From Cuniculiplasma divulgatum (GTDB taxonomy: Archaea; Thermoplasmatota; Thermoplasmata; Thermoplasmatales; Thermoplasmataceae): a stretch of 64,000 bases of DNA. Where the stretch lies: assembly GCA_031200235.1 (NCBI GenBank), contig CP133595.1, positions 1,240,001 through 1,304,000 of the forward strand. The letters run 5' to 3'. This document shows, piece after piece, positions 35,381 through 42,344 of the stretch. Every line of letters starts with the position of its first letter. The stretch's first letter is position 1. Both the position numbers and the translations under genes were made by a program. The notes beneath the pieces were generated by a model. That model saw only the letters and a program-made list of their open reading frames with translations. It was not told the DNA's origin and did not search any database.

Positions 35381-36226
35381 ATGTCATACACATCTGAAAT
35401 AAGCAGGCGAAACCCAGGACTGTTCATTTTCATGGTTGATCAGTCCAGATCCATGAGCCACAAACTTGGCGGCACACTGAGATCAAAATCACAGGAGGCT
35501 GCTGATGCCATAAACAGGCAGATTTATGAGCTCATATACAGGTGCACGAAAACAGATGGCGTCAGGGACTATTTTGATATTGGTATAATAGGCTATGGCG
35601 CCGCTGCAGATACTGCTGCATCATTGCTTAAGGAAGCTGACATAGTTCCAATTTCGAAGCTGGCTGCCAGCCCTCTGAGAATGGAAAAGAGAACTGAGAA
35701 AGTTACCGATCCGGACGGAAGTGAGGTTGAAACAGAATTCGAATTTCCGGTGTGGTTTGAACCAGTCGCAAACTCCAACACACCAATGGTGAAGGCATTC
35801 CAGCTTGCAAAGGAATGGATCGATGACTGGTCCGCGGAGCACAGGGATTCTTACCCGCCTGTGGTCATAAATATCTCTGATGGCGCAGCAACCGACGGAG
35901 ATCCCATGAAAATTGCCAGGGAAATCATGGAAATGAGCACTTCGGATGGCAAGGTGCTTCTCTGGAACTGCCATCTTTCTGAGCTTAAGGGGGCAAGGCC
36001 GCTGGCGTTTCCATCCGATCAAGCTGTCCTTCCAAGGGATGACAAGTTTGCACAGCAGCTCTTCGACATGTCAAGTGTCCTTCCTGACAGCTTCCTGAGC
36101 ATTGCGCAGGAGCGGTCGCTTGATGTGAACAGCAACTCCCGCGCATATGTATTCAATGCGGGACTTGACGAACTGCTGGAACTGCTTGACATAGGAACAA
36201 GGGCCCCAACAGAAAATCTTCAATGA
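35381..36226 (+). CDS. VWA-domain protein of a TerY-P-like triad
   Basis: 281 residues. The von Willebrand A fold begins LFIFMVDQSRSMS, with MIDAS D20-x-S22-x-S24; VVINISDGAATDGDP holds the later MIDAS residues. It matches the TerY-like VWA proteins found with PP2C phosphatases and protein kinases. TATA-like AAATTTATTAG around 35350 is about 26 bases upstream of ATG. The stop overlaps the phosphatase start (ATGA), so translation is coupled. Confidence 0.88.
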   Translation: MSYTSEISRRNPGLFIFMVDQSRSMSHKLGGTLRSKSQEAADAINRQIYELIYRCTKTDGVRDYFDIGIIGYGAAADTAASLLKEADIVPISKLAASPLRMEKRTEKVTDPDGSEVETEFEFPVWFEPVANSNTPMVKAFQLAKEWIDDWSAEHRDSYPPVVINISDGAATDGDPMKIAREIMEMSTSDGKVLLWNCHLSELKGARPLAFPSDQAVLPRDDKFAQQLFDMSSVLPDSFLSIAQERSLDVNSNSRAYVFNAGLDELLELLDIGTRAPTENLQ

Positions 36227-36966
36227 GCGGCATTCAGGTCCTGGGCTTCAGGATGAGCAAGCTTGGCAACAGGTCCACGGACTGTGAGGATTTCTACAGC
36301 TGGGATCTTGCCAGGATGAAGTTTGCCATGGCAGATGGTGCCAGTTCATCCATATTTTCTGATATCTGGGCCCGATCCCTTACACAGGCTGCTATGGATG
36401 TCAATCTCTCCCTGGATGACAGTCCAGATTCCCTCCTTTTAAGCGTGATGAAAGCCGCCAGGAAGAACTGGTATGGCAGTATACAGTGGGCCGGGCTGCC
36501 GTGGTTCCTTCGCAACAAATCCGTATCTGGATCCCATTCAACTCTCCTTCTGATGCAGGCATGGCCTCTTGCTTCATCGTACCGTTATTCTGCTGTTGCC
36601 GTTGGAGACACCTGCATGTTTGTCCTGAAGGGCCAGAAGGTCGAGGATTCTTTTCCACTGAAGCAGTATTCTGATTTCGGGAACACTCCGTCACTGGTAT
36701 GGAGCGGAAAAGGAAGCCCCATATCGGCAAATGTCAGGATGGCTCTTCCAAAATACTCTGCAGTATCCGGGACAATTGCCCCAGGCAGCACTGTGATACT
36801 GGCAACAGATGCTGTCTCAAAATGGATTCTGGAGCATGGGAAACCGCAGGAAATCCTGGAAGTTATGGGAAATGATCACGCCATGAAAGGATTCATAAGC
36901 AGGGAGATCAACGCCAGAAGGATGCGCAACGACGACACGGCAATCGTAGCCATACGCATCACGTGA
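36223..36966 (+). CDS. PP2C-family protein phosphatase of the triad
   Basis: 247 residues with PPM/PP2C metal motifs: RSTDCEDFYSW near residue 20, FAMADGASSS (D38), VGDTCMFVL and NDDTAIVAI near the C-terminus. It should remove phosphate from Ser/Thr, probably reversing the adjacent kinase. It overlaps the VWA gene by 4 bases, and overlaps the convergent kinase gene end by 8 bases. Confidence 0.9.
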   Translation: MSGIQVLGFRMSKLGNRSTDCEDFYSWDLARMKFAMADGASSSIFSDIWARSLTQAAMDVNLSLDDSPDSLLLSVMKAARKNWYGSIQWAGLPWFLRNKSVSGSHSTLLLMQAWPLASSYRYSAVAVGDTCMFVLKGQKVEDSFPLKQYSDFGNTPSLVWSGKGSPISANVRMALPKYSAVSGTIAPGSTVILATDAVSKWILEHGKPQEILEVMGNDHAMKGFISREINARRMRNDDTAIVAIRIT

Positions 36967-38371
36967 TGATCTGGTCAAGGGAAAAGCCATCCCACAACGG
37001 ATCCTTAGACAGGAACTGGAGAAGAAGATCAATGATTTTCTTTATATTCCTGCTCCTGGTTTTCCTGAGTTCAGAGAAAACTGCGGATTCTGACGGTTTC
37101 AGGTAGTCAGGCTTCCTGAGTATAAGGCAGTCTGGATCGTCGCCGTTGAATTTCTCCCACAGTTCAGGCTTTATGGTCAGTGCCTGCATAGCTAGCTGTA
37201 TTACAACCACAGAGAAGGTGTCAAGCTTTTCGCTGTATGTGTCAGCCTTCCTTCCGGGATGCTGGAAATCAGCATGGCCAAGCTCTGTTGCTCTCTCTCC
37301 CTTGAAAGCAGGGATGAACATTCCGTCGTAGTCCACGAATTTTATCTTCCCCTTTGAGTCTATGATTATGTTGTCACCTGAAAGGTCACCATGGGCTATC
37401 CCTGCTGACTGAAGAGCCATAGCAGCCTCAACAATGCGATTTCCAGTTGTCTTAAGGATTCTAGGTTCCGAGATGTGTGCCGATATGAACTGATTCAGAG
37501 TTGTCCCCTCTATCCATTCCATCCGGAGCATTGGGAAGTAAACGCCGTTAACCTTCCGCGTCTTGATACCCTCCGGGTAATATACGAAATGCGTCAGGCA
37601 GTCTGGCGCATTTTGCAGGCTGTTAAGGTATGAACTGATGGTGCTGTATCTCTGGTTTATGCTCAGAGATTTCTTGGTGAAGCATTTGAGGGCATAGAAT
37701 TTTCCGTCTCCCGTTGATATTTTGTAAATGGAGCCGTAATTGCCGGAAGCATGGACATACCAGGACGGGTTCTTAGGATTCCTTACGGCTTCCCAGGTAT
37801 CAGTTTTGCCAATGGACGGGCTCAGGTTAAGTTTGAGTGTCTGGAAGGACTGCTCATAATCCTGCCCGGAAGGCCACTGCCCGTTGTATACCGGTGGAAC
37901 TTTCTGGATTATCCTTGTCACGGTCTGTGTGATGCCGCTTCCTCTGGTGGATCCTGATTGCTGCGGCGGGGGCGCTGACGGAGTGACAACCGGATTGGAA
38001 GCAGGAACTGAGGTTACCGACGGAGCTGAGGCAGGCTGTGATGACGGCACCTTCTTTGCCACAACAGGTTGTGTTTTTGCATTGAGCGCATCATATATGC
38101 GTATGGCCATCTCCAGGACGCCTCTCCATTCATCCATGTCCGGTACAGAGAAAAGTATCCTCTTCCCAGCATTGTCAACTATGCAGAGTTTCTTCAGTAT
38201 CCTACCCTCAATGGAAGCCGCGTACATCTTCTCCAGGGGTATCTGGATTCCTTTTCCCCCATCATCAGGGATGAAGGAAATGCCTCCCGCAGAGAGGATG
38301 AGCGATCCTTTCTGTCCATCAAGGGAGGCCGAAGTCCCCTTGAAAATTGTGGATCTCTCGTTCTGGGCCAT
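36959..38371 (-). CDS. Ser/Thr protein kinase of the triad, with N-terminal PH-like domain
   Basis: 470 residues. Residues 1-95 resemble a bacterial PH/GRAM-type beta domain; 100-150 are a Pro/Ser/Ala-rich linker; the kinase follows with GNYGSIYKI (210-218), the ATP lysine K229 in YALKC, the catalytic loop HGDLSGDN (327-334) and VDYDGMF (346-352) in place of DFG. GHADFQHP after the DYDG is typical of kinases of the TerY-P triad. It is transcribed toward the phosphatase rather than in the same direction, which is unusual for this trio. Confidence 0.88.
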   Translation of the reverse strand: MAQNERSTIFKGTSASLDGQKGSLILSAGGISFIPDDGGKGIQIPLEKMYAASIEGRILKKLCIVDNAGKRILFSVPDMDEWRGVLEMAIRIYDALNAKTQPVVAKKVPSSQPASAPSVTSVPASNPVVTPSAPPPQQSGSTRGSGITQTVTRIIQKVPPVYNGQWPSGQDYEQSFQTLKLNLSPSIGKTDTWEAVRNPKNPSWYVHASGNYGSIYKISTGDGKFYALKCFTKKSLSINQRYSTISSYLNSLQNAPDCLTHFVYYPEGIKTRKVNGVYFPMLRMEWIEGTTLNQFISAHISEPRILKTTGNRIVEAAMALQSAGIAHGDLSGDNIIIDSKGKIKFVDYDGMFIPAFKGERATELGHADFQHPGRKADTYSEKLDTFSVVVIQLAMQALTIKPELWEKFNGDDPDCLILRKPDYLKPSESAVFSELRKTRSRNIKKIIDLLLQFLSKDPLWDGFSLDQIIT

Positions 38372-40130: not shown

Positions 40131-40970
40131 TCAGAACAGTGTACCGAAGTCAGATTTCTTCTCCTCCAGCCATTCTTCCTGCTGGCTGTTGCACCTGACA
40201 CCATATCTTTCTGCCATGGATTCTATGTTTTTCACAAGGTTCAGGTGCCATGCCTTATCCACGTGGTATGATCTCTCTGCAACAAATCCTGGAACAGTGG
40301 AGTTCATAAGGCGGTTGGCTGCAACATATGGGACATAGGTATCGAAAATCACCCTTGAGCCGCTACGTGATGCAAGAGAAAATATTGCATCCATCTCATC
40401 AGGTTCATCATTGAATCCACGTATTATGGGCCCAAGGAATATCCATGTCTTAACACCCGAGTCTGAAAGATACATCAGGGCATCTCCGCGGGATCTGGGT
40501 GATGGGGCATGGGGCTCAATTATCCTGGCTTTCCTGTCATCAAGTGTTGTGATGGTGATCCCAACATCGCTGGAATTCCTGTGTGCTGCATATATTTCTG
40601 CATCCCTCCTGACAAGTGGCGACTTAGTCTGGACCGTTACCCTGAATCCAGATCTCAGGAGAAGATCAGCTGAAGCACCGCTGAGGCCGTACTTTGCCTC
40701 AACCGGCTGGTACGGATCTGTGACAGTTGAAATGCCAACAATCCCCCTCTTCATGCCTTTTATCTCCGCCTTCAGGAGATCCATAAGGTTGGTCTTGACG
40801 TAAACGACTTCCCCCCAGTTCTCTGCTGCATCCGCTATGCGGGTAAAGTCAACTGCATAACAGTATTTGCAGCCGTGAAGGCATCCTGAATAAGGGTTCA
40901 GCGCGTAATCCAGCTCAGCCATTCCAGATTTGGATATGGCAGTTTTGGCCCTGTATTCTACAACTCTCAT
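40131..40970 (-). CDS. Radical SAM protein (SplB-like)
   Basis: 279 residues from ATG 40970. The cluster motif is C30-x3-C34-x2-C37 in SGCLHGCKYCYA, followed by VGISTVTDPYQPVE and VTVQTKSPLV, typical of COG1533 proteins distantly related to spore photoproduct lyase. The start lies one base after the nreA stop, so the two are an operon. A DNA-repair role is inferred from that partner. Confidence 0.88.
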   Translation of the reverse strand: MRVVEYRAKTAISKSGMAELDYALNPYSGCLHGCKYCYAVDFTRIADAAENWGEVVYVKTNLMDLLKAEIKGMKRGIVGISTVTDPYQPVEAKYGLSGASADLLLRSGFRVTVQTKSPLVRRDAEIYAAHRNSSDVGITITTLDDRKARIIEPHAPSPRSRGDALMYLSDSGVKTWIFLGPIIRGFNDEPDEMDAIFSLASRSGSRVIFDTYVPYVAANRLMNSTVPGFVAERSYHVDKAWHLNLVKNIESMAERYGVRCNSQQEEWLEEKKSDFGTLF

Positions 40971-40971
40971 G

Positions 40972-42222
40972 TCAAATCCTGAAGTACCTGTCAAGGTTGT
41001 TGTATTTCAGGGCGGGGACGACCTTTGATCTGCCCGTCCATCGTGATGGCTCCACCTTCATGAATTTAGAGATGTAAGCAATAGCCTCATCCAGGGTGTC
41101 GAACTGCACCGGCTGTGATCTGAAGAGTTCCCTCATGTTCTCCCTGACATACCATACGCCCACCGGGAGGTTGAAGCCGGGATATATTTCACGCCAGGTT
41201 ATGGCGCCTCCTGATCTCCTCATGCCTGAGAATTTCTCAGCTACAGCCAGCCTTGCCGAATAATAGCACCCACCGATGCCAGGGTAGTCTTTCCTCCCGT
41301 TGTAGCCCTCGTCATCTATTTCCACGAAAGCATCTTCGCCCCACTGGTTCCATGTGCTGCCAGGAAACCATGATTCACCCCATTCGTACATCCAGCTTGA
41401 AGGAGTGAGAATCGCCATGAAAAGATTGCCCGGAGTCGGCCTTACAAAGGCAAGAAACTTGTCAATCTGGGGTAGATCCTTGGCCTTCTCCACCAGATCA
41501 TCAGATAGGTTCTTGTCAACGGCAGTGATTGACCACCTGGTGGGAACAACCTTCCTGGCCTTCCCTATGCCAACAGCACCAACACTGAGTATTTTTGATA
41601 TTCTCGAAACATCCACTCCACTTGAATAGAGATATTTCATTGCCTGGTTTGCCTTCAGATCAGTGTCTCCGTAAACCTTCTCAACATCCTTCCCCGGTGA
41701 GGCTCCTGAAACTTCTATCCTTCGCACAGGAGCGGAAGGCCCCATGGGAGGCAGATGCTCATCAAGAACAATATCTGAGGACACCAGATTTCGGTCAAAC
41801 ACCATGTCAACTTCCACGGATTTCTGGGAGAGTGCCATGAGCTGGATCTCCTGGAATACCCGATCCGGTGAGGCAGCGTCGTCTGTCTTCACGTCCATCC
41901 CTCCCCTTATGAGGGAAAGCCTCATTGAGAGAAATTCCTCCATGGGCATTCCAAGCCATGATGGCGTATCCTCGTAAACGGATGTATCTCCGTGCTCAGG
42001 TGGCGTTGATGGATAAATCTTGATGCGGGGATATCCGTATCTTCCAACAAAAACACTTGGAGGTGATGATCCGGAAATGGAATTACCACGTACACTGGAT
42101 ACTCTGGGCTGCACCATGTACTTTACGGAAATTGGGCAGAAAGTCAGGCCACACAACATCCTGGCTCCCCTGCAATTGAGGCACAGGGATGCCGGTATCT
42201 TCATTGTGGCCTTAACCTGCAT
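40972..42222 (-). CDS. nreA: NreA-like DNA repair protein
   Basis: About 416 residues from ATG 42222. An N-terminal zinc-type cluster (CLNCRGARMLCGLTFCPI) leads to the Nre core (SVFVGRYGYPRI, TRWSITAVDKNLSDDL). The last residues, NNLDRYFRI, resemble a PCNA-interacting PIP box, as reported for haloarchaeal NreA, which acts with PCNA in repair of alkylation-type damage. The frame reaches 42276, but a TATA element 25 bases upstream favours 42222. Confidence 0.88.
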   Translation of the reverse strand: MQVKATMKIPASLCLNCRGARMLCGLTFCPISVKYMVQPRVSSVRGNSISGSSPPSVFVGRYGYPRIKIYPSTPPEHGDTSVYEDTPSWLGMPMEEFLSMRLSLIRGGMDVKTDDAASPDRVFQEIQLMALSQKSVEVDMVFDRNLVSSDIVLDEHLPPMGPSAPVRRIEVSGASPGKDVEKVYGDTDLKANQAMKYLYSSGVDVSRISKILSVGAVGIGKARKVVPTRWSITAVDKNLSDDLVEKAKDLPQIDKFLAFVRPTPGNLFMAILTPSSWMYEWGESWFPGSTWNQWGEDAFVEIDDEGYNGRKDYPGIGGCYYSARLAVAEKFSGMRRSGGAITWREIYPGFNLPVGVWYVRENMRELFRSQPVQFDTLDEAIAYISKFMKVEPSRWTGRSKVVPALKYNNLDRYFRI

Positions 42223-42240
42223 ATGAACAGATTGGCAACT

Positions 42241-42250
42241 GATATTTAAG
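42241..42250 (-). promoter_or_regulatory. TATA box of nreA
   Basis: ACTTAAATATC on the minus strand (about 42240-42250) lies about 25 bases before ATG 42222, giving a leaderless start for the nreA and radical SAM operon. Confidence 0.5.
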
Positions 42251-42344
42251 TTATATTTTTTCGCAGTCGATACCACGTGGCATAAACTTTACGGGCCTAC
42301 AGCCATGTAAAGTTAAATTCCATAATAGCAATACGGGGGAGATA

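What the first reader, a model, noticed from the sequence alone, without database searches (positions are those of the whole stretch)
35381..38371. VWA, PP2C phosphatase and kinase triad in a Thermoplasmatales genome
Three adjacent genes encode a MIDAS VWA protein, a PP2C phosphatase (4-base overlap) and a Ser/Thr kinase with VDYDGMF and GHADFQHP, the composition of the TerY-P triad described mainly in bacteria. Here no tellurium-resistance ter genes are adjacent, and the kinase is encoded on the opposite strand. It may be a phosphorylation switch with an unknown target.
Basis: partly seen in the sequence, partly recalled or inferred. Interest (0 to 1): 0.68.

Follow-up and report, generated by a model that had tools for sequence, protein, structure and literature searches.

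The report
Archaeal TerY-P kinase–phosphatase switch
Three neighbouring genes in an acid-loving archaeon form a protein on/off switch (a kinase, a phosphatase and a metal-binding helper) whose bacterial cousins are a rare anti-virus system, but here it is a nearly universal single-copy gene set whose kinase carries a different attachment or sensing domain in each archaeal branch.

Summary
TerY-type VWA (35381-36226 +) and PP2C (36223-36966 +, 4-nt overlap) converge on a Ser/Thr kinase (36959-38371 -). All three match the PADLOC TerY-P profiles (E 1.9e-86, 9.6e-23, 4.4e-63). The kinase matches only its catalytic half; the C-terminal OB tail of the anti-phage kinase is absent.

In archaea the triad is single-copy. 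TerY is in 23 of 35 high-quality genomes of the family, and all 12 misses fall in genera g2, g5 and g14, one EF-2 clade. TerY and kinase co-occur 52/1/1/23. The kinase is convergent in 47 of 47 archaeal loci and co-directional in 12 of 12 bacterial loci. No TerD was found in 11 genomes, and no third partner is linked. A close E. coli TerY-P is in 4 of 5,426 genomes.

New: the archaeal kinase carries an N-terminal domain swapped by lineage: PH fold here (AF2 pLDDT 86, Z about 12), an unrelated soluble domain, or transmembrane helices.

Best reading: a TerY-P switch turned into a housekeeping, probably membrane- or protein-localised phospho-relay. Its target is unknown. New variant of a known kind.

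The parts
35381..36226 (+). TerY-type VWA (MIDAS) protein, 281 aa
   Evidence: PADLOC TerY E=1.9e-86 over residues 1-275; MIDAS residues invariant in 17 archaeal homologues; dN/dS 0.02-0.03
36223..36966 (+). PP2C-family phosphatase, 247 aa, ATGA overlap with TerY
   Evidence: PADLOC PP2C E=9.6e-23, Pfam PP2C_2 E=5e-5, just below gathering score; acidic residues invariant in 31 archaeal rows
36959..38371 (-). TerY-P-type Ser/Thr kinase, 470 aa, converging on PP2C with an 8-nt overlap
   Evidence: PADLOC STK_OB E=4.4e-63, profile 41-285 of 562 only; Pfam Pkinase E=3.8e-13; AF2 pLDDT 84, protein-kinase fold
38078..38371 (-). N-terminal PH-fold domain of the kinase, residues 1-98
   Evidence: AF2 pLDDT 85.8, seven strands plus C-terminal helix; Foldseek hits SSRP1, TFIIH p62, GRK2 PH; VIA-align Z about 12; G22, L24, F33, G56, V76, W82 invariant in 15 rows
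37892..38077 (-). disordered Pro/Ser/Thr-rich linker, residues 99-160
   Evidence: pLDDT mostly under 50 at 100-158; the three parts compared: dN/dS 0.13 linker, 0.09 PH, 0.05 core
36962..37891 (-). kinase core, residues 161-470, with pre-kinase motif WPSGQDYEQSFQ (37841-37876) and HGDLSGDN (37370-37393)
   Evidence: the pre-kinase motif is shared with bacterial TerY-P kinases (YPSLEQYxxAFQ); catalytic motifs aligned

Best explanation
This is the archaeal branch of the TerY-P triad, kept as a housekeeping reversible-phosphorylation switch. The kinase phosphorylates one or more Ser/Thr targets and the PP2C removes the phosphate. The metal-binding VWA protein, the most conserved of the three, most likely works as the adaptor that holds kinase, phosphatase and substrate peptide together through its MIDAS metal. 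The kinase is placed or triggered by its N-terminal domain: a PH-fold domain in this genome, transmembrane helices in Thermoplasma and its relatives, an unrelated soluble domain in Cuniculiplasma and its relatives. This takes the place of the C-terminal OB tail of the anti-phage form, so the input has probably changed from nucleic acid to membrane, envelope or protein state. Shown: gene composition, intact catalytic and metal residues, conserved convergent order, near-universal single-copy presence, one-clade loss, domain swaps. Inferred: enzymatic activity, complex formation, the adaptor role, input and target, and a non-defence role.
For: Profiles. Single copy in the family: TerY in 53 of 77 genomes (one genome shows a split, stop-interrupted copy). 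23 of 35 high-quality genomes have it, and the 12 misses are g2 (3), g5 (8) and g14 (1), one clade at SH-aLRT 100 in the EF-2 tree. 52/1/1/23 co-occurrence, with one exception explained by a contig end. Convergent kinase in 47 of 47 archaeal loci. No other gene family shared by more than 13 of the 70 loci (loci partly redundant; three larger clusters there are antisense shadow frames of the triad itself). Bacterial contrast: 4 of 5,426 E. coli genomes, beside an IS element and type I RM genes. N-terminal swap with unrelated profiles. Expression: in C. divulgatum, VWA protein CSP5_0782 was detected by mass spectrometry and is 1.21-fold up in cold (PMC7285479); gene order in L034 (ADH, helicase, kinase, PP2C, TerY) fits CSP5_0778 to CSP5_0782.
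Against: No activity, complex or target has been measured. Wide conservation does not exclude defence. Some bacterial triad kinases are already TM-fused (actinobacteria, PMC7159879), and the alphaproteobacterial kinases sampled (L121, L127, L134) also lack the OB tail, so loss of the tail is not unique to archaea. The loss in g2, g5 and g14 shows that the triad is dispensable in some acidophiles. The presence in f14 looks like horizontal transfer (AU p=0.037).
Confidence: 0.6

Rival explanations
1. It is an anti-viral defence system like the bacterial TerY-P, fixed in Thermoplasmatales because of constant virus pressure.
For: Best profile matches are the PADLOC defence models. Bacterial homologues with 43-46% identical TerY (L107-L117) are of the TerY-P type that RefSeq names in E. 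coli, next to type I RM genes.
Against: Single copy and present in all 23 high-quality family genomes outside the loss clade; no PADLOC hit other than a helix-turn-helix match among 10 neighbouring genes; OB tail absent; no relative found in phage or IMG/VR collections. Defence genes are usually patchy.
Confidence: 0.2
2. It is a metal- or oxidant-stress switch in the sense of the Ter systems, with the VWA metal site as the sensor.
For: MIDAS residues invariant; PP2C is itself a metal-dependent family (recalled); metal sensing is the published hypothesis for the triad (PMC11090510); the organisms live in acid, where metals are abundant (recalled).
Against: No TerD in 11 genomes; MIDAS sites usually mediate ligand binding rather than sensing (recalled); no link to metal-resistance genes; the acidophiles of the loss clade lack the triad.
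Confidence: 0.12
3. The kinase is an independent neighbour and only TerY-PP2C form a unit; the convergent order reflects shared terminators.
For: Opposite strand, so no shared transcript.
Against: 52/1/1/23 co-occurrence; the 3' ends overlap or lie within 11 nt in 31 of 31 rows read; all three trees recover the archaeal set and most of its subgroups; all three are adjacent and co-directional in bacteria.
Confidence: 0.04

Closest known systems
TerY-P anti-phage system (Gao et al. 2020, seen through PMC7699616 and PMC11090510; PADLOC TerY/PP2C/STK_OB)
   Same: Same three protein families, same kinase motifs, TerY 43-46% identical to the proteobacterial homologues.
   Different: OB tail missing, PH-fold N-terminus added, kinase gene flipped, near-universal in the family rather than 4 of 5,426 genomes as in E. 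coli.
[quoted passage not shown] pylori islands (PMC4978471); passages read
   Same: VWA + PP2C + kinase.
   Different: The CoCoNuT kinases carry a C-terminal zinc ribbon (PMC11090510) and the triads sit with McrBC-like, helicase or nuclease genes; no nuclease or helicase is linked to this triad across the family.
Kinase-PP2C-vWA sets in actinobacterial GAP1-N2 GTPase systems (PMC7159879, one passage read)
   Same: Same trio; the kinase may be fused to TM helices, as in the Thermoplasma branch.
   Different: Tied to GTPase conflict systems in actinobacteria; no such link here, and no PH domain mentioned in the passage read.
Eukaryotic PH-domain kinases such as GRK2 (structural match)
   Same: PH fold joined to a protein-kinase domain.
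   Different: Sequence identity about 13%, and in the matched GRK2 chains the PH lies C-terminal to the kinase (recalled; aligned at residues 555-668); an analogy of layout, not shown to be common descent.

Membership tests
TerY-P triad, broad sense (TerY + Ser/Thr kinase + PP2C; PMC4978471) | TerY-family VWA with intact MIDAS | tested here: met
   E=1.9e-86; residues invariant
TerY-P triad, broad sense (TerY + Ser/Thr kinase + PP2C; PMC4978471) | PP2C phosphatase encoded next to TerY | tested here: met
TerY-P triad, broad sense (TerY + Ser/Thr kinase + PP2C; PMC4978471) | kinase of the TerY-P kinase family next to them | tested here: met
   STK_OB E=4.4e-63 against 1.5e-9 for the next model; motifs
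Tellurium-resistance (ter) gene cluster | TerD-family genes present or linked | tested here: not met
   TerD in 0 of 11 genomes, so it is not filed as a ter cluster; stand-alone TerY-P does not need ter genes
Stand-alone anti-phage TerY-P (STK_OB type) | C-terminal OB-fold tail on the kinase | tested here: not met
   window kinase matches profile 41-285 of 562; bacterial controls L175 1-552, L107 1-559, L113 1-530; only 121-127 aa follow DYDG in 42 of 43 archaeal kinases
Stand-alone anti-phage TerY-P (STK_OB type) | co-directional operon TerY-PP2C-kinase | tested here: not met
   convergent kinase in 47 of 47 archaeal loci, co-directional in 12 of 12 bacterial
Stand-alone anti-phage TerY-P (STK_OB type) | protects against phage or virus | not testable with these tools
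   needs a virus challenge
CoCoNuT type II/III-A TerY-P | zinc-ribbon tail and cnu genes alongside | tested here: not met
   no room for a tail; no shared nuclease or GTPase neighbour; 10 neighbours without such PADLOC hits
PH-domain superfamily (N-terminal domain) | seven-strand barrel closed by a C-terminal helix bearing a conserved Trp | tested here: met
   predicted model, pLDDT 85.8, Z about 12, W82 invariant in 15 rows; not a solved structure; no Pfam hit at E<=1 for the window domain itself

The most novel reading that the evidence does not exclude
A defence-type phospho-switch was captured once by the Thermoplasmatales, became a core cellular signalling device, and then evolved by exchanging the kinase's input domain (PH fold, transmembrane helices, soluble domain) while TerY stayed almost unchanged. 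It would be an archaeal PH-fold protein kinase with its dedicated phosphatase and metal-dependent adaptor, reading membrane or envelope state in these wall-less (recalled) cells.
Probability: 0.4. Interest if true: 0.72.

Novelty: new variant of a known kind. Interest (0 to 1): 0.52.

Why it matters
TerY-P is known as a sporadic defence or stress module whose mechanism is unsolved. A clade in which it is single-copy, near-universal and free of nuclease partners isolates the switch from its effectors and makes its core function testable. It would also supply a defined kinase-phosphatase pair for archaeal Ser/Thr signalling: in G058 (genus g16, Thermoplasma by contig match) the triad kinase is the best Pkinase match, with only one other, weaker match.

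Tried and rejected
Third partner: ORF clustering over 70 archaeal loci (L032-L051, L059-L106, L129 and the window; partly the same genomes) found no family linked to the triad beyond 13 loci, apart from antisense shadow frames of the triad genes. The ArsR-like gene 33 nt upstream of TerY is found only in L059 and L061, so it is not part of the system.

Viral carriage: IMG/VR scan with the window TerY gave none; 0 of 50,697 phage records; 2 of 72,556 plasmid records, both cyanobacterial.

PH and soluble N-terminal domains as diverged versions of one domain: rejected, hhalign probability 0.3. The Ig-like label for the soluble type rests on sub-threshold Pfam hits and is not claimed.

Lipid binding by the PH fold: not tested. 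Pfam did not recognise the window domain.

f1 TerY as one clade without f14: disfavoured (p-AU 0.037), so transfer to f14 is likely but not firm.

In one search the N-terminal type of G057 was labelled by hand; could not assign it (its kinase ORF is interrupted). G057 was left out of the kinase and PP2C trees.

Literature: searches found no paper on a TerY-P triad in Thermoplasmatales. The founding paper (Anantharaman 2012, PMC4104200) is not held, so it may already list archaeal members.
Full report
Observation. The window is G000:C1:1240001-1304000 of a 2,006,340-base genome. TerY and PP2C overlap by 4 nt. The kinase, on the other strand, overlaps the PP2C 3' end by 8 nt. Pfam alone is weak (VWA 0.0016, PP2C_2 5e-5, Pkinase 3.8e-13), but the TerY-P profiles of PADLOC are decisive. 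NCBIfam gives no TerY-P model match.

Catalytic state. MIDAS residues D20, S22, S24, T134 and D167 are invariant in 17 archaeal TerY proteins. PP2C E22, D23, D38, D129, D196, D237 and D238 are invariant in 31 archaeal rows. Kinase K229, H327-G328-D329, N334 and D347 are invariant in 29. Roles of these residues are from general knowledge of the families. Against relatives L059 and L060, dN/dS is 0.02-0.03 for TerY and 0.07-0.09 for PP2C and kinase (kinase against L060 only; NG86). Against L061 synonymous sites are saturated for TerY and kinase, and the PP2C value is 0.21.

Distribution. TerY: 53 of 77 genomes of the family, 16 of 19 genera; 0 of the 40 further genomes of the order (53 of 117); 55 of 400 drawn from the class, of which 44 are in f1, 7 in family f14 and 4 are weak matches in f15. 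PP2C: 54 of 77. Kinase by strong match: 53 of 77, counted from the rows; weaker rows there were not counted. TerY against kinase: 52 both, 1 TerY only, 1 kinase only, 23 neither. The kinase-only genome G033 ends 125 bases after PP2C. The TerY-only genome G064 shows a PP2C reading frame that runs antisense into the kinase, consistent with a deletion or misassembly. Of 35 high-quality genomes 23 have TerY; the 12 without are g2 (3), g5 (8) and g14 (1). An EF-2 tree joins these three genera at SH-aLRT 100 inside the family, so one loss suffices. Misses elsewhere are in genomes under 90% complete.

Named relatives. The genome scan kept 80 of 94 confirmed loci: 49 archaeal, all Thermoplasmata (including Thermoplasma, Cuniculiplasma, Thermogymnomonas and Ca. 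Sysuiplasma), and 31 bacterial. The search used two strict patterns, so divergent members elsewhere may be missed. In 47 of the 49 archaeal loci a kinase is on the contig, and in all 47 it faces TerY-PP2C; L088 and L089 show no kinase before the contig ends. Of 13 bacterial loci with PP2C (L107-L119), 12 have a kinase, all co-directional. The other 18 bacterial loci, mostly Alphaproteobacteria, have no PP2C hit, and 17 have a co-directional kinase. The 3' ends of PP2C and kinase overlap by 8-23 nt in 25 of 31 archaeal rows and lie 0-11 nt apart in the other 6 (G057 dropped, L085 repeats L036).

Kinase architecture. Archaeal and bacterial triad kinases share a pre-kinase motif (WPSGQDYEQSFQ / YPSLEQYNQAFQ), HGD(L/I)xxxN, (V/I)DYDGM and GHxxFQHP. 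Accessory sequence has moved ends: archaeal kinases have 111-267 residues before the motif where the script found it, and 121-127 after DYDG in 42 of 43 (L070 was missed by the script); TerY-P kinases L107-L119 have 2-41 residues before the motif where found (L119 has a long N-terminus in which it was not found) and 256-445 after. Kinases L121, L127 and L134 are short at the C-terminus too (144-157 after), so tail-less forms exist in bacteria. PADLOC STK_OB covers three bacterial controls almost fully and five archaeal kinases only to position 268-285 of 562.

N-terminal domains. Among 43 archaeal kinases read (window included) have the PH-type N-terminus, 14 have predicted transmembrane helices by hydropathy, and 14 have another soluble domain; the assignment uses the sequences. 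Profile scores on a second set agree for PH, soluble and TM rows except the broken G057 (some rows were also in the profiles, and G007 and G034 score lower). PH and soluble profiles do not match each other. The PH domain model has pLDDT 85.8; the best PDB matches are PH-fold domains such as those of SSRP1, TFIIH p62, GRK2, neurofibromin and ARAP3. On the TerY tree the three types form three groups (TM 99/97, PH 100/99, soluble 100/99), needing two changes. The kinase-core tree recovers the PH group but leaves Thermoplasma's place among the TM group open, and the PP2C tree leaves the deep order open. The archaeal-bacterial split is 100/99 for TerY and kinase and 88/89 for PP2C. Bacterial rows include long branches.

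Transfer. f14 (Sysuiplasma-like) TerY sits beside g18 (99/96), although EF-2 places f14 outside f1; p-AU 0.037. That the named loci L083, L096, L098 and L103 are f14 is inferred from L096 (Ca. Sysuiplasma) and from their separation from f1 rows. A transfer within Thermoplasmata is likely.

Contrast with bacteria. A close DNA relative of the Pantoea TerY is in 4 of 5,426 E. coli genomes; in strain G3/10, RefSeq names the three genes TerY-P anti-phage, near an IS5-like transposase and next to type I RM genes. This counts one DNA lineage only. Ten neighbours of the window triad give no PADLOC match at 1e-5 apart from a helix-turn-helix match to Csa3.

Expression. PMC7285479 (passages only) reports C. 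divulgatum VWA protein CSP5_0782 among proteins 1.21-fold up in cold, and CSP5_0778 as an alcohol dehydrogenase-type reductase. That CSP5_0782 is this TerY is inferred from gene order and from my recall that G008's size fits C. divulgatum.

Mechanism. The published idea for the triad is a metal-sensing phosphorylation switch, and OB-tailed versions are stand-alone anti-phage systems (PMC11090510). In this branch the tail that suggested nucleic-acid binding is gone, and an N-terminal domain that differs between lineages (TM, PH or another soluble domain) has been added. The common denominator of TM and PH types is localisation, so membrane- or protein-tethered input is the most economical reading. 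It is an inference. TerY's slow change, against fast change of PP2C and kinase (90%, 54% and 59% identity to L061), fits a hub that binds several partners.

Verdict. A real, conserved, probably active triad of the broad TerY-P kind; not a member of the STK_OB anti-phage type, since two of its features were tested and not met; a new variant with housekeeping distribution. Target unknown.

Noticed in passing
L169 6165-11863 (G000:C1:1716164-1721862), about 440 kb from the triad: A second phospho-signalling cluster by reading of the ORFs: VWA (394 aa), zinc-ribbon + FHA (182 aa), PPP-type phosphatase (290 aa), multi-TM Ser/Thr kinase (787 aa), zinc-ribbon protein. FHA-kinase pairs also lie close together in G065 and G030.
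   Followed up: partly
G124 and G135 (family f14), aEF-2 gene, loci L165 and L164: EF-2 reading frame of 1049-1053 aa instead of about 735, with the profile match split near position 40: looks like an intein.
   Followed up: no
L072 5352-7500 (G064), L174: TerY intact, but the PP2C frame runs into the kinase antisense: a deletion or an assembly error.
   Followed up: no
L104 (G069) and L079 (G057, Thermogymnomonas acidicola): Interrupted triad reading frames in two genomes (stops inside); degraded genes or sequencing errors.
   Followed up: no
G055 (g14) C4:139975-140721 and C1:616581-617519: A genome without the triad has two other strong protein kinases (1225 and 615 aa frames; E 2e-62 and 1.5e-25).
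   Followed up: no
window 40131-42276 -: A radical-SAM gene next to NreA is found near the triad in 12 other locus entries (some from the same genomes); probably chance synteny.
   Followed up: partly
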